A stretch of DNA of 64,000 nucleotides from Fidelibacterota bacterium (GTDB taxonomy: Bacteria > Pseudomonadota > Alphaproteobacteria > Rhodospirillales > Rhodospirillaceae), in NCBI GenBank assembly GCA_947475295.1, contig CANJLF010000006.1, forward strand, positions 1-64,000, given 5' to 3'. Below are positions 45,601-57,478 of this stretch, in pieces. Numbering within the stretch: the first letter of the stretch is position 1; the number at the start of each line of letters is the position of its first letter. The position numbers were made by a program, and so were the translations under genes. The notes under the pieces were generated by a model that saw only the letters and a program-made list of their open reading frames with translations, had not been told where the DNA came from and made no database searches.

Positions 45601-45740
45601 AATAGGCGTCGGCACAGCCGCGGCCCTGTTCACATATGGGAATATTGGCGTGGCGGCGCTATTGCTGAGAGAGTAGTGCGGCAGCCGACACGTGGGCGTC
45701 GACTGTGACCGGGGTGGGACCCGGTTGGTTGGGGGTGGCG

Positions 45741-46502
45741 ATGCGGTTAAACCGGATCCTGCTGGGATTGGCGTTGTCGGTAGGCTTTGTGCTGGCGGCC
45801 TGGATTGGCGCGCCCGCTTTTGCCCAGACGCGCGACGTCAAAATTGTTGCTGCCGACGGCCGCCGGGTCGCACTGGTCATCGGCAACACTCAGTATCGCT
45901 ACGTCACACCGCTGGCCAATCCCAAAAACGACGCACGCGCCATTGCAGACAGCCTCAAGAAGCTTGGCTTCGATGTTGATGTCGGCCTCGACCTAACGAA
46001 AGCGCAGATGCAAGAAACCGTGCGCCGTTTCGGCACGCGCCTGGAAGGTGCGCAGGCGGCGGTTTTCTATTACTCCGGCCATGGCCTGCAGATTAACGGC
46101 GCCAATTACCTGGCCGCGGTCGATACCAAAATCGCCAGCGACAAAGACATCGAATACGAAGTGCTCGACGTCAGCCAAGTCTTGCGCCAAATGGAAGCGG
46201 ACAAGCGCGTCAACTTGGTGTTCCTCGACGCCTGCCGCAACAATCCTTTCGCCGAGACGCTGCAGCGCTCGATCAAGGTCGGCACCCGTGCGATCAGCAT
46301 CGGCTCGGGCCTGGCGCCTGTGGATGCCGCTGCCGGCACGCTCATCTCCTACGCCACCAAGGACGGTACGGTCGCTTCCGACGGCGTGGGAGATCATAGC
46401 CCTTTCACCCGCGCGCTGCTGGCTGAGATGTCCACACCGGGTCTTGAAGTCGGCCTCATGCTGCGGTGCGGCGTTACGCAAAAGTTTACCTTCGTAGAAT
46501 AA
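45741..46502 (+). CDS. exported caspase-like (C14) protein, truncated at C-terminus
   Basis: About 253 residues from ATG 45741, with GGGGGTGG upstream. A signal peptide (~1-29, ending PAFAQ) is followed by a complete caspase fold: RVALVIGNTQYRYVTPL, catalytic His114 in YYSGHGL, catalytic Cys165 in FLDACRNNPF. Bacterial metacaspase-like proteins of this kind usually continue after LMLRRVR...PWE.GSL; here the frame ends in an unrelated 11-residue tail after LMLR. The protease core is intact, the tail is lost, probably by deletion or insertion. Confidence 0.82.
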   Translation: MRLNRILLGLALSVGFVLAAWIGAPAFAQTRDVKIVAADGRRVALVIGNTQYRYVTPLANPKNDARAIADSLKKLGFDVDVGLDLTKAQMQETVRRFGTRLEGAQAAVFYYSGHGLQINGANYLAAVDTKIASDKDIEYEVLDVSQVLRQMEADKRVNLVFLDACRNNPFAETLQRSIKVGTRAISIGSGLAPVDAAAGTLISYATKDGTVASDGVGDHSPFTRALLAEMSTPGLEVGLMLRCGVTQKFTFVE

Positions 46503-46584: not shown

Positions 46585-47982
46585 TTGAGAGTTTTTCTTA
46601 GCGCGGCTTTTACGCCGATCGTCATGGCAGTTTTGGCATGCGGCAGCGCGCAAGCGCAGTCGGCAAGGCAAACGCCGGTTGATGCCTTCATCCCGGAGCC
46701 GATGCCTCCTTCTGTCCGCGTCGTCCAAACGGAATTAGACGGACCTCTCTTTGCCGACGCGGCGGGGAAGGTTTTTTATATTTGGCCCGCAAAGGGTCAA
46801 CGGGTTGGCCGTACCGGCGACGAAATGGGCAAGGCGCCGAATTGCGAGGATACGGTCATAAAAGTTTCCGCGGGCACAATGCCGCCGTATCCCGCCGGTC
46901 TGGAACTTCCTGAAGCAGACACACGCCCGGCCTGCACGCAAGTATGGCCGCCGTTCCTTGCCGCTAACGATTCCAAACCTGTCGGCCAGTGGAACATCGT
47001 TTCCCGCGCGAATGGCAGCAAACAATGGACGTATGAGGGCTATCCTGTTTATACGTCGGCTTTGGATCGCGAGGCCGCAGCACCCGTGGGCAGCGCGCGT
47101 ATACGGGCCAAAGGCGATTCGGGAAATCTGCGCGAACCGATCGGCCCTCTTGCCGATGTGCCTGCTCAGTTTGTCGTCGTGTCGTCTCAGACCGGCAGAT
47201 TTTTGGCCCGGGTCGATGGCCCAGTGGTTTATACGTCGGACAAAGACGCTCCCAATAAATCGAACTGCGACAAAGCCTGCCTGGGCGAGTGGCAACCCGT
47301 ATTAGCCGCGATGGCGGCGCCGCAGAGCCGCGGCGAATGGGGCGTGATCGAGCGTTCTCCCGGCGTGAGGCAATGGACATTCCGGAAAATGCCGGTTTAT
47401 ACGCGGATCGCGGATTCCGTTGACGACAAATATCGGCCTCACGGCTTTGACGGCAGCGATAAACCCGGGTGGCACATTGCCTACGTCCGCTTAGGTCCAA
47501 ATATTCCCAAGGGATTTTCGATTCAGGATACGACGCGTGGACAGGTGGTCGCTGACCCGCAAGGCCGCACCGTCTACACGCATGCCTGCATCGACGACGC
47601 CGCTGATATGCAGCCCTGCGATCACCCCAATCAGACGCAGGCTTACCGCTATGCCGTCTGCGGTCATAGCGATCCGGTGCGGTGCGTTAAGAACTTTCCC
47701 TATGTGATCGCCGAGAAGGGCGCGAAGAGCGACAACAAGACCTGGAGCGTGGTGTCCATCGATCCCGCGAGCGGCAAGTTTGCGGCGCCGGGGCAAGCGG
47801 GCGCTTTGAACGTTTGGGCTTTCCGCGATCGGCCCATCTACACCTTCATCCGCGATAAGGCGCCGGGCGACCTCGAAGGCGACGCATGGGGTGAGATGAA
47901 CGGCTTCCGCAATGGCTTCCATGCCATTTGGATGCGCGACCAATTCGGCCTTTTCAATGAAGAGACACGGAGAGACCAATGA
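46585..47982 (+). CDS. exported protein with three COG4315-like repeats
   Basis: About 465 residues from a TTG at 46585, eight bases after GGAGG and directly at a signal peptide (VFLSAAFTPIVMAVLACGSAQAQ). The mature protein has three related modules (~45-190, 205-310, 330-460), each with an F/V-A-D-x-x-G-x-x-Y/F strand, a C-x(n)-W-P/QP core (CTQVWPPF, CDKACLGEWQPVL), and an ending KQWTYEGYPVYT or RQWTFRKMPVYT. This is the secreted repeat of lipoprotein_15/COG4315, function unknown. First gene of the four-gene operon; stop overlaps the next start by 4 bp. Confidence 0.78.
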   Translation: MRVFLSAAFTPIVMAVLACGSAQAQSARQTPVDAFIPEPMPPSVRVVQTELDGPLFADAAGKVFYIWPAKGQRVGRTGDEMGKAPNCEDTVIKVSAGTMPPYPAGLELPEADTRPACTQVWPPFLAANDSKPVGQWNIVSRANGSKQWTYEGYPVYTSALDREAAAPVGSARIRAKGDSGNLREPIGPLADVPAQFVVVSSQTGRFLARVDGPVVYTSDKDAPNKSNCDKACLGEWQPVLAAMAAPQSRGEWGVIERSPGVRQWTFRKMPVYTRIADSVDDKYRPHGFDGSDKPGWHIAYVRLGPNIPKGFSIQDTTRGQVVADPQGRTVYTHACIDDAADMQPCDHPNQTQAYRYAVCGHSDPVRCVKNFPYVIAEKGAKSDNKTWSVVSIDPASGKFAAPGQAGALNVWAFRDRPIYTFIRDKAPGDLEGDAWGEMNGFRNGFHAIWMRDQFGLFNEETRRDQ

Positions 47983-49088
47983 CCCGTACGCTTCTGCGTT
48001 CCGCGACCGTTGGCCTTGGCGTAGCTTTAGCGATCAGCGCCGGTTCTTCCGCAAGCGTTGCCGAGACCGCGCTCAAGAACCGCTCGATCGGCTACGTCAT
48101 GTACCACGAGAATCGTTCGATTTATGAGACGCCGGAGAAGAAGGAATGCCCGAACGGATTTAATACGGGCCCCTCTGAGCAGATACCGCTGTGGACTCCG
48201 GGCGGCAACAAAACGGTGCTCGGCACGCAGCTCGACTATGAGGGCGAAGTGCTGTTTCCGGGAACGAGCGAAGACCGCTTTCCGTTTAACTATGTGACAG
48301 GAAACGTCGGGCTGGGTTTGAATCTGGACGGCAAGGTCGGCCCGAACGACTTCACCAGCCCCGATGGCGAGCGCGGCATCGACAACCAGTTCTATCGCGT
48401 GATGGGCTGCGTCTACAATTATCGCCACGATGGAAACACCTCGATCAATTTTCCGCGGTGGCGCTCGCAGTTTCCTTACAACGTCTATGTGATTGAGCTG
48501 ACGGACGTTGATAGTCTCGCCAACGATCCGGATGTGACCGTGACGACCTATCGCGGTACCGACAACCTGCTGACCGACGCGACCGGCATGGGCTATTTGC
48601 CGGGCGGTTCGCAGACCATCGACATGCGGTGGGGCAAGAAATTCATCCAGAAATTCCGCGGCAAGATCGTGGACGGCATGCTCACCACCGAGGCCAAGGA
48701 CTTGATCGTTCCGACAGGTTCCTATTTCACGGCGCGGGACGGCATTCCGGACATCCTGTATCGCGATATGCGTTTCAGCCTGAAGGTGAACGAAACGGAC
48801 GCGGTTGGTTATATGGGCGGTTATGTGGATGTCGAGAACTGGATCATCCACTCCTACAAAACCCGCTCCACGCCGCTCCAGATCTACGGGCAAAGCTTGT
48901 TGCCGTCGATCTACCGCGCCATGCGCAAGATGGCCGACGGCCATCCCGATCCCGAGACCGGGGCTAACACCACGCTCTCAACGGCCTTGGACGTGAAGTT
49001 CAAGCAGGTCTTCGTCAAGCACCCGGACGACGCCGTGGCGTCGGCGGGCACTAACGCCTCGACGACACTGGCCTCCGCCGGCAACTGA
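47979..49088 (+). CDS. exported protein of unknown function in the DUF1592/DUF1552 operon
   Basis: 369 residues with a signal peptide (~1-28, AISAGSSASVAE). No domain known to me. The sequence is beta-rich, with three Cys-poor blocks; readable marks are GYVMYHENRSIYETPEKKECPNGFNTGP, RGIDNQFYRVMGCVYNYRHDGNTS, and QIYGQSLLPSIYRAMRKMADGHPDPETGANT. Start overlaps the upstream stop (ATGA); next gene 21 bp away. Its constant company with the haem and DUF1552 proteins would have to be checked, but operon structure implies a shared process outside the cytoplasm. Confidence 0.75.
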   Translation: MTRTLLRSATVGLGVALAISAGSSASVAETALKNRSIGYVMYHENRSIYETPEKKECPNGFNTGPSEQIPLWTPGGNKTVLGTQLDYEGEVLFPGTSEDRFPFNYVTGNVGLGLNLDGKVGPNDFTSPDGERGIDNQFYRVMGCVYNYRHDGNTSINFPRWRSQFPYNVYVIELTDVDSLANDPDVTVTTYRGTDNLLTDATGMGYLPGGSQTIDMRWGKKFIQKFRGKIVDGMLTTEAKDLIVPTGSYFTARDGIPDILYRDMRFSLKVNETDAVGYMGGYVDVENWIIHSYKTRSTPLQIYGQSLLPSIYRAMRKMADGHPDPETGANTTLSTALDVKFKQVFVKHPDDAVASAGTNASTTLASAGN

Positions 49089-49109
49089 ACAAAATATTAG
49101 AGAACCGAT

Positions 49110-50837
49110 ATGTTTCGTATGAAAGAAAAGACATCGATCTCAAAGCGCAGGCTCACGTTCTTGCGTGGATGCGCCTTTGTCGCGCTGGCCGCATGCGCCA
49201 TCGCAGCATGTTCCGCCCCGACAGGCGTCCAGAACGATGCGGCAAGAGTCGCAACGCTTCAGGAGCCCGACACCAAAGGCGCGCCGACGAGTGTCCGCCT
49301 CGTGACTGGAGCGCAGCTGCTCAATACTGTCGCATATCTGTTCGGCCCGGATGTGAAGACCATCACGCGCTTCCCGCCCATGGAGCGGGTTGAAGGCCTG
49401 CTGCAAATCGGCGCCGGCCGCGCCGGCATCAACGACAATTATCTGGAAATCTATCGCAAGGCTTCGACGGACGTCGCCGCGCTCGTGATGGATGTGCGCC
49501 GTCGCAACTTCTTGATCGGCTGTACCCCTGCCAATCCGAACGCCGCGGACAATGCTTGCGCCACCCAATTTCTGTCGCGGGTTGGGCGCATTCTCTTCCG
49601 CCAGCCCTTGGACAAAGCCAGGACCGACGAAGTGGTGGGCATCGCGAACACCGCCGCTGACACGCTGGGCGATTTCTATTCCGGTCTGGGGATCGCCTTA
49701 GAAACGCTCCTCGTCAGCCCCAAGACGCTGTTCGTCGTGGATCGAGCCGAACCGGATCCGGCACGCCCGGGCGAACAACGTCTCGATGCCTATTCCCTCG
49801 CGTCGCGCCTGTCGTTCTTCCTTTGGAATGCCGCCCCCGACGATACGGTGCTAAAGGCGGCCGAGAGCGGCGAAATCCTGACACCGAAAGGCCGAGCCAA
49901 GATTGTCGACATGATGCTGGCGAGCCCGCGGCTTGAAAAGGGCGTGCGCGCCTTCTTCGACGACATGCTGGCCTTCGATGATTTGGAAGTTCTGGCGAAA
50001 GATCCGCAGATCTATCCGGTCTTCACCGGCAACGCGGTGGGCGACGCGCGCGAGCAAGCGCTGCGCACGATCACGGAGCTGCTGGTCACCGAGAGGAGCG
50101 ACTATCGCGATCTCTTCACGACCCGCAAGACGTTCGTTTCGCCCGCGCTCGCGGCTGTCTATCAAATGCCGACGAACAGCAGTTGGATGGCATACGAGTT
50201 TCCAAAGGACAGCCCCCGCATCGGCATTCTGACTCAGGCGGCCTTCCTCGCCGGCCATTCGCATCCGGGCCGTTCTTCGCCCACCTTGCGCGGCAAGGCG
50301 CTGCGCGAACTGCTGTTTTGCCAGAAGGTTCCGCCGCCGCCGCCGAACGTCGATTTCTCGGCGGTCGAGAACCCCGACCCGAACATCAAGACCGCGCGTG
50401 ACCGGCTGGACGTCCACCACAAGAATCCCGTATGCGCCGGTTGCCACAAGATCACCGACCCGCTTGGCCTCGCGCTCGAGAACTTCGATGGCGCCGGCCA
50501 GTATCGTGAAAACGAGAAAGGCGCGCCAATCGACGCAACCGGCGCTCTCGACGGCGTCCCTTTCAACGACCCGGCCACTTTGGGCAAAGTGCTGCATGAT
50601 AGTCCCGCTTTGACGTCATGCCTCACGCGGCGGGTCTTGTCTTACGCAACCAGCAACGCCAACGCCGATGCCGAGGTGCTCAAATATTTTAACGCGCAGT
50701 TCGGGATGCATGGCTACCGCATCCCGGATCTCCTGCGCGTGATTGCTCTCAGCGAAAGTTTTTCAAGAGTTCGTGCTCCGGAGTCCACAACCAAAACAGC
50801 AGATGCGGGGGCGTTGACGAACGCCGCCGCCAAATAA
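49110..50837 (+). CDS. haem-binding lipoprotein, DUF1595-DUF1592-DUF1588-DUF1585
   Basis: 575 residues. Lipobox-like IAAC after a basic N-terminus. Order of modules: GRILFRQPLDKARTDEV (DUF1595, ~160), LDAYSLASRLSFFLWNAAPDD (DUF1592, ~225-390), RIGILTQAAFLAGHSHPGRSSPTLRGKALRELL through CAGCHKITDPLGLALENFDGAGQYR (DUF1588, ~370-465), and LTSCLTRRVLSYAT...LLRVIALSESF (DUF1585). The c-type haem motif is Cys442-x-x-Cys445-His446. The family is abundant in Planctomycetes and myxobacteria and is always linked to DUF1552/DUF1501 partners; the substrate is unknown. Confidence 0.85.
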   Translation: MFRMKEKTSISKRRLTFLRGCAFVALAACAIAACSAPTGVQNDAARVATLQEPDTKGAPTSVRLVTGAQLLNTVAYLFGPDVKTITRFPPMERVEGLLQIGAGRAGINDNYLEIYRKASTDVAALVMDVRRRNFLIGCTPANPNAADNACATQFLSRVGRILFRQPLDKARTDEVVGIANTAADTLGDFYSGLGIALETLLVSPKTLFVVDRAEPDPARPGEQRLDAYSLASRLSFFLWNAAPDDTVLKAAESGEILTPKGRAKIVDMMLASPRLEKGVRAFFDDMLAFDDLEVLAKDPQIYPVFTGNAVGDAREQALRTITELLVTERSDYRDLFTTRKTFVSPALAAVYQMPTNSSWMAYEFPKDSPRIGILTQAAFLAGHSHPGRSSPTLRGKALRELLFCQKVPPPPPNVDFSAVENPDPNIKTARDRLDVHHKNPVCAGCHKITDPLGLALENFDGAGQYRENEKGAPIDATGALDGVPFNDPATLGKVLHDSPALTSCLTRRVLSYATSNANADAEVLKYFNAQFGMHGYRIPDLLRVIALSESFSRVRAPESTTKTADAGALTNAAAK

Positions 50838-50850
50838 GGGAGATAAAGCC

Positions 50851-52179
50851 GTGACCCATATGAATAGACGTCGCGTACTGCGAGGCATACTGAACGGCGG
50901 CGCCGTGACCGTTGGCTTGCCGCTTCTCGATTGTTTCCTCAATACCAACGGCACCGCGATGGCGGACGGCAAGCCGCTGCCGATCGCATTCGGCACCTGG
51001 CATTGGGGCTTGGGTATCGCGAGAAACGTCTTCGAACCCAAAACAACCGGGCTGAATTATGAGCTGACCCAGCAGTTGCTGCCGCTGAAAGACGTGAAGC
51101 AGCACATCAACGTGCTCACGAATTTCACCGCGTTCCGGGACTCCGCGCCCGCGATCTGTCACCACACGGGCTGGGTTATCGCGCGCTCGGGTAATGCTCC
51201 CAGGACCAACGGCGACGTCGTGGAAACGATCGACGTCACGACGGCCGCCCGTATCGGCCGGACCACACGCTTCAAGATCCTGGCCGCCTCGGCTGTCAAC
51301 AACGTCCGCGAAACGTTCTCCTACGACAATCCGACGACGCCGAATACCGCCGAGACCTCGGCGCTCGGTCTGTATACGCGTATTTTCGGGCCGGATTTCC
51401 AGGACCCCAACGCGCCGACCTTTACGCCGAATCCCGCCGTCATGGTGCGCAAGAGCGCGCTCTCGGGCGTCATGAACGATATCAAGGATGTCGAAAAGGT
51501 GGTCGGCGCCGAAGATAGGGCGCGCATGGATCAGTATTTCACGGCCGTGCGCCAGGTCGAGCGGCAATTCGAGCAACGCCTCACTAAGCCCGAGCCCATC
51601 GCCGCGTGCCATTCTCCGAAGGCGCTTGGCGAAGACATCAAGATCGGCACCGAAGTGGAATTGGTGAGCTCGCGCCACAAGACCATGGCGAGCCTGATGG
51701 CGATGGCCGTGGCCTGCGATCAGACGCGCGTGTTCAACCTGTACTACGGCGGCTTCGATCATACCAAGCTGGGCTACGAGAAGCCCCACCATGCCTGCAC
51801 GCATGAAGAGCCGATCGATGAAAAGCTGGGGTACCAGATCAACCACGCCTGGTTCACCATGCGCTCCATCCAAGCCTGGGCGGAATACGTCAAAGTGCTC
51901 GCCGACTTCAAGGAAGGCGGCGGCTCCTTGCTTGATCGCGTTCTGGTCATGGGCACCACCGACGTGGGCGAAGCGCGCATCCACTCCATCGACCACCTGC
52001 CCATACTTATGGCGGGCCGCGCCGGCGGTAAGGTCAAGACCGGCTACCATGTGGATGGCGGCGGCACGTCTATCGCGCGCATCGGCTACACGGCAATGCG
52101 TGTCATGGGCCTCGACATTCCCAACTGGGGAACCAACAGCAACAACACGTCCAAGGAATTGGGCGAAATCCTCGTCTAG
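50851..52179 (+). CDS. DUF1552 protein with Tat-type signal
   Basis: 442 residues from GTG 50851, with GGGAG nine bases before. An NRRRVLRGILNGG motif followed by hydrophobic AVTVGLPLLDCFL is a twin-arginine signal. The DUF1552 body shows FGTWHWGLGI, HHTGWVIARSGN, SRHKTMASLMAMAVACDQTRVFNLYYGGFDHT and MGTTDVGEARIHS. Tat export suggests folding with a cofactor in the cytoplasm. It is the standard partner of the DUF1592/1588/1585 protein encoded 13 bp upstream. Function unknown. Confidence 0.88.
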   Translation: MTHMNRRRVLRGILNGGAVTVGLPLLDCFLNTNGTAMADGKPLPIAFGTWHWGLGIARNVFEPKTTGLNYELTQQLLPLKDVKQHINVLTNFTAFRDSAPAICHHTGWVIARSGNAPRTNGDVVETIDVTTAARIGRTTRFKILAASAVNNVRETFSYDNPTTPNTAETSALGLYTRIFGPDFQDPNAPTFTPNPAVMVRKSALSGVMNDIKDVEKVVGAEDRARMDQYFTAVRQVERQFEQRLTKPEPIAACHSPKALGEDIKIGTEVELVSSRHKTMASLMAMAVACDQTRVFNLYYGGFDHTKLGYEKPHHACTHEEPIDEKLGYQINHAWFTMRSIQAWAEYVKVLADFKEGGGSLLDRVLVMGTTDVGEARIHSIDHLPILMAGRAGGKVKTGYHVDGGGTSIARIGYTAMRVMGLDIPNWGTNSNNTSKELGEILV

Positions 52180-52194
52180 CTTCAAAGGCGCGGG

Positions 52195-52225
52195 GACCCG
52201 AGCGGATTTCATATTCGCTCGGGTC
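52195..52225 (+). repeat. hairpin after the DUF1552 gene
   Basis: Inverted repeat gacccgagcg / cgctcgggtc around an 11-base loop, 15 bp after the DUF1552 stop codon. No T-run follows directly. It probably protects the mRNA 3' end or assists the strong terminator 18 bp further on. Confidence 0.7.
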
Positions 52226-52242
52226 TTGCCGGCAAAATAACG

Positions 52243-52275
52243 AACCCCCTGCGCCCGTTGGCCAGGGGGTTTTTT
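52243..52275 (+). terminator. intrinsic terminator of the DUF1592/DUF1552 operon
   Basis: Stem aaccccct / agggggtt (52243-52250 and 52264-52271) directly followed by a T-run. It is a canonical Rho-independent terminator on the plus strand and closes the four-gene operon. Confidence 0.93.
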
Positions 52276-52445
52276 ATTTGGCTCGCCCCGCATGCGGCTG
52301 AGCCCAAAACATTCAGTGAGTATGTATGCAATGTCGGCTTAGCCAATCGCGAGCGCAGCGCGTGGCATGAAAGAGCGTTGGGTCGATAGGCAAGCGTGAT
52401 ACTGTGGAGCGATTAGACGCCAGCAATAAATTCGGGGGATTTCCA

Positions 52446-53423
52446 ATGCTGCATCGTCGCACACTTCTCGCTTCCGCATTGACTGTGGCCGCGGCAGCAT
52501 CGGTGCCCAAGGCGACGTTCGCCGCGCAGCCCGCACCGTTCAAGCTGTACGACACACACGCACATTTTTACCCAAGCGATCCGACCAAATATCCCTATCG
52601 GCCCGACGTCGCCGCGGCAGTAAAAACCAGGGTGATGGCCGATCCCCATACGCCGGAAGTTAACTTCAAATTATGGGACGACAACGGCGTCGAGATGGGA
52701 ACCGGCGTGCAGTACAACGCCCTTTACTTCGCCGACAACCGCTATCTGCTCTATGTTGCCGCGCAGAATCCGCAGCGGATCGTACCCGTCGTCATCGTAG
52801 TGCCCGATGATCCGGCGACGCCCGCAGCACTTGCCCGCATGGCGAAGGAAAATCGCATCGCCGGCGCACGCACTTTCCAGTTGCCTGACGCCGAGGGCAA
52901 CATGCAGCTCACGGCCGATGCCTCTAAGGGCATGTGGGAAGCGGCCAACGCATTGGGTCTCACCATTGTGGTCTTCTTGAACCCGGCCAAGGAACCGCAA
53001 GCCCTGCCGGCGGCTTTGACGAAGATCGCGGCTTTTGCCGACCGCTATCCCAACGCCAACATCTGCATCGACCATCTCACCTTGTCGGCGGCGACTAAGT
53101 TTGGGCCGGACTTCGGCCTTGGCCCACAGCATCGCGCGCTGGCGCAGCACAAGAATATCTATTTCAAATACACGACCTTTGTGACCGAAGCGCTTCACGC
53201 GGCCAACGTCCCGGCCAAGGACTTTCTTGAGCACGCGGTCGGACTCTATGGCGCCGATCACATGGTTTGGGGTTCGGATCTCGGAAACACGCAAGGCGCC
53301 TATAGTGAGTTCGTGAAGGTCGCGCGCGAGTCCGCGGCAGGACTGACGGTCGCTCAGCAGAAGGCGCTCTTCTACGATACCGCCAAACGCCTATTCGTCC
53401 CCGGTGGGCATGGCCGCGGCTGA
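52446..53423 (+). CDS. exported metal-dependent amidohydrolase
   Basis: About 325 residues from ATG 52446 (GGGGG upstream). The N-terminus LHRRTLLASALTVAAAASV resembles a Tat signal with one HRR pair. Amidohydrolase_2 TIM barrel: metal-binding DTHAHF near residue 40, HLTLSAATKFGP, YFKYTTF, and GADHMVWGSDLG with the catalytic Asp. Such enzymes hydrolyse or decarboxylate cyclic or lactone substrates. It follows the operon terminator by 170 bp, so it has its own promoter. The substrate is unknown. Confidence 0.85.
   Translation: MLHRRTLLASALTVAAAASVPKATFAAQPAPFKLYDTHAHFYPSDPTKYPYRPDVAAAVKTRVMADPHTPEVNFKLWDDNGVEMGTGVQYNALYFADNRYLLYVAAQNPQRIVPVVIVVPDDPATPAALARMAKENRIAGARTFQLPDAEGNMQLTADASKGMWEAANALGLTIVVFLNPAKEPQALPAALTKIAAFADRYPNANICIDHLTLSAATKFGPDFGLGPQHRALAQHKNIYFKYTTFVTEALHAANVPAKDFLEHAVGLYGADHMVWGSDLGNTQGAYSEFVKVARESAAGLTVAQQKALFYDTAKRLFVPGGHGRG

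Positions 53424-57391: not shown

Positions 57392-57478
<87 letters not shown>

What the first reader, a model, noticed from the sequence alone, without database searches (positions are those of the whole stretch)
46585..52275. Four-gene export operon of unknown role: COG4315 repeats, orphan exported protein, haem DUF1592 lipoprotein, DUF1552 Tat protein
Four tightly packed genes (4-bp overlap, 21-bp and 13-bp gaps) end in a strong terminator and all encode exported proteins: a triple-repeat protein, a 369-aa protein of no known family, a lipoprotein with one CXXCH haem site, and a Tat-exported partner. DUF1592/1588/1585 with DUF1552 is best known from Planctomycetes and myxobacteria and has no assigned function. 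The addition of a COG4315 multi-repeat protein and the 369-aa protein makes a defined set that may be an extracellular redox or polymer-handling machine.
Basis: partly seen in the sequence, partly recalled or inferred. Interest (0 to 1): 0.75.

Follow-up and report, generated by a model that had tools for sequence, protein, structure and literature searches.

The report
Amplified TonB-linked haem gene cassette
Four neighbouring genes for exported proteins form one conserved set that some little-known bacteria carry many times over, often beside an outer-membrane import channel, which suggests a poorly understood redox machine for processing and taking up nutrients.

Summary
The four-gene operon is real; its domains, gaps and terminator check out. 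The set is amplified: four cassettes here, and 20 g2 hits (the scoring cap) in 10 of 18 congeners. In 53 of 53 four-gene runs the order is a cyclic permutation of g1-g2-g3-g4. In 24 of 71 loci a TonB-dependent receptor lies nearby on the same strand. A Bradyrhizobium copy has ExbB, an ExbD-like frame, TonB, cytochrome c' and b561 in the same run. DUF1552 is predicted to have an alkaline-phosphatase/sulfatase fold. In other classes some haem-protein relatives carry starch-binding and glucose/sorbosone-dehydrogenase domains.

Best reading: a TonB-coupled, haem-dependent machine that processes organic substrates for uptake. Substrate, electron direction, physical assembly and location are inferred; the window's copy has no adjacent receptor. 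The DUF1592/DUF1552 pair is known; the amplified four-gene form was not found described.

The parts
   Evidence: E 1.6e-26; 24 of 24 aligned homologues match PF03640; start context
47979..49088 (+). g2: 369-aa protein with a signal-like start, of no described family; model holds a barrel-like sheet, fold match weak
49110..50837 (+). g3: probable lipoprotein with one c-type haem motif (DUF1595-DUF1592-DUF1588-DUF1585)
   Evidence: CXXCH in 64 of 64 full-length ORFs, duplicates included
50851..52179 (+). g4: Tat-type DUF1552 protein; predicted alkaline phosphatase/sulfatase-superfamily fold
52190..52280 (+). two hairpins and a T-run (52270-52275): intrinsic terminator
   Evidence: sequence; fold z -7.52

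Best explanation
g1-g4 encode one envelope redox complex that works with a TonB-dependent receptor to process an organic substrate during uptake. g3, a haem-c lipoprotein, passes electrons between the substrate side and periplasmic cytochromes. g4, a Tat-exported protein with an alkaline phosphatase/sulfatase-type fold, is its partner and the probable substrate-site protein; it need not be a phosphatase. g1 and g2 are added exported partners, probably for binding and assembly. The cassette has been duplicated many times, the copies perhaps diverging to different substrates, as SusCD pairs did in Bacteroidetes (recalled). SHOWN: the set, its amplification, near-fixed cyclic order, parallel divergence, frequent receptor neighbour, haem motif. 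PREDICTED: the g4 fold. INFERRED: physical complex, location, substrate, electron direction, substrate diversification.
For: Same 32 of 99 relatives hold g2 and DUF1552 (tables compared by eye). 53 of 53 four-gene runs are cyclic permutations of one order, and the four genes' distances correlate at r 0.87-0.93 (about five runs are parse artefacts or ambiguous), and at 0.64-0.81 among 8 copies of one genome. TonB-dependent receptor in 24 of 71 deduplicated loci, all on the strand of the nearest cassette gene, 15 of the 24 within 700 bp (my count), including two of three Steroidobacter/Peristeroidobacter loci. Bradyrhizobium copy: ExbB, ExbD-like frame, TonB, g3, g4, cyt c', cyt b561, g2 on one strand. 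G173 copy: g2, g3, g4, cyt c', receptor. g3 relatives in other classes: CBM26 plus glucose/sorbosone dehydrogenase in two of five. Published: Cellvibrio Cbp2D (CBM2, DUF1587, two cytochrome domains); knock-out of the cbp2D/E genes slowed growth on cellulose, and one haem domain reduces LPMOs (PMC8981238, passages).
Against: The window's cassette has no receptor nearby; the nearest in this contig is about 78 kb away. 47 of 71 loci show no receptor, though many are cut by contig ends; one Peristeroidobacter locus (L116) is among them. In a 5-copy set from one genome g1-g3 and g2-g3 distances did not correlate (one row was a parse artefact). Two divergent copies (L122, L137) lack a detectable g1. 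No direct evidence of complex formation, haem attachment or substrate. g1 and g2 have no informative fold or sequence match.
Confidence: 0.45

Rival explanations
1. Periplasmic respiratory dehydrogenase only: g3/g4 oxidise a small substrate and feed the respiratory chain; nearby TonB-dependent receptors supply the substrate but are not mechanically coupled.
For: Cyt c' and b561 beside the Bradyrhizobium copy, glucose/sorbosone-dehydrogenase fusions, no receptor near this window's copy.
Against: Repeated close same-strand receptors in alpha- and gammaproteobacteria-titled records; ExbB/TonB genes ahead of g3 in Bradyrhizobium, the longest TonB and g3 frames overlapping by 4 bp.
Confidence: 0.25
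2. Electron donor to a secreted oxidase or monooxygenase, as proposed for Cbp2D: electrons run outward through g3 to break polymers.
For: Cbp2D (PMC8981238, passages), a CBM2-DUF1592 Cellvibrio protein (PMC6004670, one table row), CBM26/PKD fusions.
Against: No lytic monooxygenase or glycoside hydrolase family was among the neighbours scanned; these were a chosen subset, not all neighbours.
Confidence: 0.13
3. g4 is an ordinary exported hydrolase (phosphatase or sulfatase type) and the haem is structural or incidental.
For: Top VIA matches of the g4 model are phosphodiesterases, sulfatases and phosphatases.
Against: Near the end of the first strand, where that superfamily has a metal-binding Asp (recalled), W50 is invariant; position 371 is D 17, E 6, C 1 of 24. 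CXXCH is present in every full-length g3 checked.
Confidence: 0.1
4. Cassettes amplified by recombination for surface or adhesion roles unrelated to nutrition.
For: Tandem arrays, lone g2 genes and g1-g2 pairs.
Against: All four families stay recognisable at mean distances of 0.45-0.58; concordant presence; receptor linkage.
Confidence: 0.07

Closest known systems
PSCyt3/PSD (DUF1595-1592-1588-1585) + DUF1552 gene pair
   Same: g3 and g4 are that pair. PMC5615132 (passages) says PSCyt2 and PSCyt3 genes usually lie next to two families of unknown genes, function unknown.
   Different: Here the pair is joined by g1 and g2, amplified, and often has a TonB-dependent receptor nearby. In five other-class loci fetched the pair stands without g1/g2 hits (in L139 the DUF1552 neighbour comes coordinates, not from my profile).
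Cellvibrio japonicus Cbp2D/Cbp2E
   Same: Exported haem protein; Cbp2D has a DUF1587 domain (PMC8981238, passages).
   Different: [quoted passage not shown] no CBM in g1-g4, and g2 has no profile match to YceI.
SusCD-type utilisation loci (recalled)
   Same: Many divergent paralogous cassettes, TonB-dependent receptor, exported partners, hydrolases.
   Different: No SusD family among g1-g4; haem and Tat proteins instead; receptor not always near.
DUF1501 proteins (PF07394)
   Same: Another exported partner family of PSCyt proteins (recalled); a short aligned stretch with g4.
   Different: Profile comparison not significant (probability 1.7); 3 separate matches in this genome.

Membership tests
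PSCyt3/PSD haem protein family | DUF1592, DUF1588 and DUF1585 over Pfam cut-off | tested here: met
PSCyt3/PSD haem protein family | c-type haem motif CXXCH | tested here: met
   64 of 64 full-length ORFs, one each, duplicates included; haem attachment not testable here
PSCyt3/PSD haem protein family | DUF1587 N-terminal domain | tested here: inconclusive
   14.1 bits, cut-off 23, in the window protein; over cut-off in relatives L137, L138
DUF1552 (PF07586) | match over cut-off | tested here: met
   140.8 bits, cut-off 30
alkaline phosphatase/sulfatase superfamily (g4) | fold | tested here: met
   [not shown]
alkaline phosphatase/sulfatase superfamily (g4) | canonical metal and nucleophile residues | tested here: inconclusive
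   no residue-level superposition; W50 near the first strand's end and H104, H314, H318, E320, H378 are invariant in 24 of 24
SusCD-type locus | TonB-dependent receptor next to the set | tested here: inconclusive
   24 of 71 loci; not near this window's copy
SusCD-type locus | SusD-like lipoprotein | tested here: not met
   no SusD family among g1-g4 at E<=0.1
Cbp2D-like protein | CBM2, YceI-like and haem domains in one chain | tested here: not met
   separate genes, no CBM
YceI (g2) | profile similarity | tested here: not met
   hhalign probability 0.13; no YceI hit in 24 members
PF03640 secreted repeat (g1) | match over cut-off | tested here: met
   92 bits, cut-off 24.4; 24 of 24 homologues

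The most novel reading that the evidence does not exclude
A new class of TonB-energised, cytochrome-bearing envelope machine: a redox counterpart of SusCD, expanded to tens of cassettes in genomes of 2.4-4 Mb of an apparently aquatic, apparently alphaproteobacterial group, that oxidatively or reductively processes many different organic substrates during import.
Probability: 0.33. Interest if true: 0.88.

Novelty: new variant of a known kind. Interest (0 to 1): 0.72.

Why it matters
In the papers found, the PSCyt/PSD proteins and their partner families have no assigned function (PMC5615132, passages). Here the pair comes with a fixed set of partners, often a TonB-dependent receptor and, in one genome, its own ExbB/TonB and cytochromes, plus a predicted fold for DUF1552. 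That makes an open question testable: delete a receptor-linked cassette and look for a lost substrate. If true, these genomes use a surface or periplasmic redox route to nutrients that annotation now misses.

Tried and rejected
(2) Solved relatives by sequence for g1-g4: no match below E 0.3; for DUF1501 one chance-like match at 0.026.
(3) DUF1501-DUF1552 homology by profile: not significant, a 41-column stretch only.
(4) Copies of g2 in viral contigs: none.
(5) The amidohydrolase downstream (52404-53423) as part of the set: no other copy in the 20 loci of the first screen; left out.
(6) Gene orders: the three 4123 runs and the 1234 calls at L046 and L092 are tandem-boundary artefacts or ambiguous. 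They stayed in the 53 rows of the correlation. The 1234 order is safe for the window, L048 and L051-L055; window and L051-L055 form one clade.
(7) The 5-copy within-genome test gave negative correlations for g1-g3 and g2-g3; one row was such an artefact.
(8) The second batch of loci (L137-L156) was partly picked because arrays or receptors were known there, so the 39 of 40 same-strand figure is biased and some loci overlap; one search is the fairer count.
(9) Eight loci repeat stretches already held and were dropped before counts; they were not dropped.
(10) Literature: searches for DUF1592, DUF1552, DUF1588/1585/1587/1595, PSCyt, DUF1501, COG4315, SCO0930 and Pfam numbers found no paper describing this set, judged from listings and, for seven papers, passages.
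(11) Rfam on the window: only a tRNA at 57395-57478.

Full report
OBSERVATION. The four ORFs, their overlap and gaps are as described. g1 carries PF03640, g3 carries DUF1595, DUF1592, DUF1588 and DUF1585, g4 is DUF1552, and g2 matches nothing above cut-off in Pfam or NCBIfam; of 24 g2 homologues scanned singly none reached a Pfam match better than E 0.069. The terminator is two hairpins plus a T-run, fold z -7.5; the consensus scan did not list it.

CO-OCCURRENCE. In the same 99 relatives (own genome included) g2 was found in 32 and DUF1552 in 32. Comparing the two tables by eye, they are the same 32 genomes, with 67 lacking both. Presence is patchy: in one genus (g3) two of three genomes have both and the third has neither. 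The concordance is not corrected for kinship. In an even sample of the phylum g2 was in 2 of 398 genomes and DUF1552 in 8 of 398; both g2 genomes have DUF1552.

AMPLIFICATION. The own genome holds 6 g2, 6 DUF1552 and 4 DUF1585 matches: four full cassettes (contigs 4, 13, 9, 6), a g2-g1 pair, a lone g2 74% identical to this one, and a tandem DUF1552 pair. Of 18 congeners, 10 reached 20 scored g2 matches and 5 reached 20 scored DUF1552 matches, the cap; first-look candidates went up to 43 and 31. Hits are single genes, not cassettes. A scan of named genomes gave 58 loci: MAGs titled Rhodospirillaceae, Alpha- or Gammaproteobacteria, Proteobacteria, Caulobacterales, uncultured bacterium or "Candidatus Marinimicrobia", plus Steroidobacter agaridevorans, Peristeroidobacter agariperforans and Bradyrhizobium sp. 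CSA207. One title names Lake Baikal; that other isolate codes are lake samples is my recall.

ORDER AND CO-DIVERGENCE. In 71 deduplicated sources there were 53 runs of four different genes: 3412 (29), 2341 (12), 1234 (9), 4123 (3), all cyclic permutations of one order. Adjacent pairs were 12 (64), 34 (57), 41 (56), 23 (28), others 12. The three 4123 runs and two 1234 runs are tandem-boundary artefacts or ambiguous. Gaps inside runs have medians of 3-11 bp, from longest ORFs. Pairwise distances of the four genes correlate at 0.87-0.93, no permutation of 999 as high, and at 0.64-0.81 among eight copies in one genome (one of the eight is an ambiguous run); a five-copy set did not show it for all pairs. 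The window's copy and L051-L055 form one clade with the 1234 order.

NEIGHBOURS. A TonB-dependent receptor was found in 24 of 71 loci, in each case on the strand of the nearest cassette gene, and within 700 bp in 15 of the 24. The class was confirmed by Pfam for one member and by NCBIfam for five, all below equivalog cut-offs. Nine genomes of this family have 17-57 plug-domain matches each, so chance adjacency should be uncommon, though I did not compute it. Two of three Steroidobacter/Peristeroidobacter loci (L112, L114) have receptor-g3-g4-g1-g2 with a creatininase hit (its place is printed for L114 only); the third, L116, has the creatininase hit but no receptor in the stretch held. Creatininase-type genes occur in 8 deduplicated loci, amidases in 6 and NHL proteins in 6; single cases are FMN-dependent dehydrogenase, M16 peptidase, metallo-beta-lactamase fold and amidohydrolase. 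I scanned a chosen subset of neighbours. The window's own copy has no receptor close by.

DIVERGENT COPIES. Bradyrhizobium sp. CSA207 (L122), one strand: ExbB, an ExbD-like frame (read by eye), TonB, g3, g4, cytochrome c', cytochrome b561, a protein without Pfam match, g2, and a DUF6351 tannase-like protein. G173 (L137): g2, g3, g4, cytochrome c', a glyoxalase-fold protein, receptor. No g1 was detected in either. Of the six other-class genomes with DUF1552 I fetched five: the g3-g4 pair stands without g1 or g2 hits (in L139 my g4 profile gave no hit and the DUF1552 place comes). Four of those five g3 proteins carry extra domains: CBM26 and glucose/sorbosone dehydrogenase (two), Big_7 (one), PKD and a cellulose-binding C-terminal domain (one).

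LITERATURE. PMC5615132 (passages): PSCyt3 genes of freshwater Verrucomicrobia lie next to an unknown family; nothing known of function; some carry carbohydrate-binding modules. PMC8981238 (passages): Cbp2D has CBM2, a YceI-like domain, DUF1587 and two cytochrome domains; it cites a knock-out that slowed growth on cellulose and shows one haem domain reducing LPMOs. PMC6004670 (one table row): a Cellvibrio CBM2-DUF1592 protein. PMC2754498 (passages): a DUF1552 protein among stress-regulated genes, and PSD/PSC domains suggested to act in redox reactions.

JUDGEMENT. Shown: a conserved, amplified, co-diverging four-gene cassette with a haem-motif protein and a frequent TonB-dependent receptor. Inferred: that it is one machine for redox processing of imported substrates. 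The pair g3-g4 belongs to a known family; the four-gene amplified form was not found described in the searches named.

Noticed in passing
window 45705-46502: Caspase-domain (Peptidase_C14) protein of 265 aa with a signal-like start directly upstream of g1.
   Followed up: no
window 52404-53423: Amidohydro_2 protein downstream of the terminator, weakly similar to L-fucono-1,5-lactonase; no other copy in the first 20 loci.
   Followed up: partly
L049 2172-3302 (G000 contig 16): Lone g2 paralogue, 74% identical to the window's, near a contig end, without g1, g3 or g4 in the 20 kb fetched.
   Followed up: partly
L050 8113-10854 (G000 contig 14): Two DUF1552 genes in tandem without a g3 hit in the 20 kb fetched.
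   Followed up: no
L145/L146 (G008 contig 26), L147 (G012 contig 36): Arrays on one strand: several cassettes with receptors over 36 kb, and five receptor ORFs (two overlapping) around a g1-g2 pair in 20 kb.
   Followed up: partly
L066 and other records titled Candidatus Marinimicrobia: Records with this title match genomes placed in the window's genus (L066 has the length of G013 contig 166), beside others titled Rhodospirillaceae; the titles look wrong.
   Followed up: no
G000 contigs 1, 2, 7: Three DUF1501 matches in the same genome.
   Followed up: no
L057 16423-18735; L046 8915-10426: Two neighbours with signal-like starts (770 and 503 aa) without Pfam or NCBIfam match at E<=1e-5.
   Followed up: no
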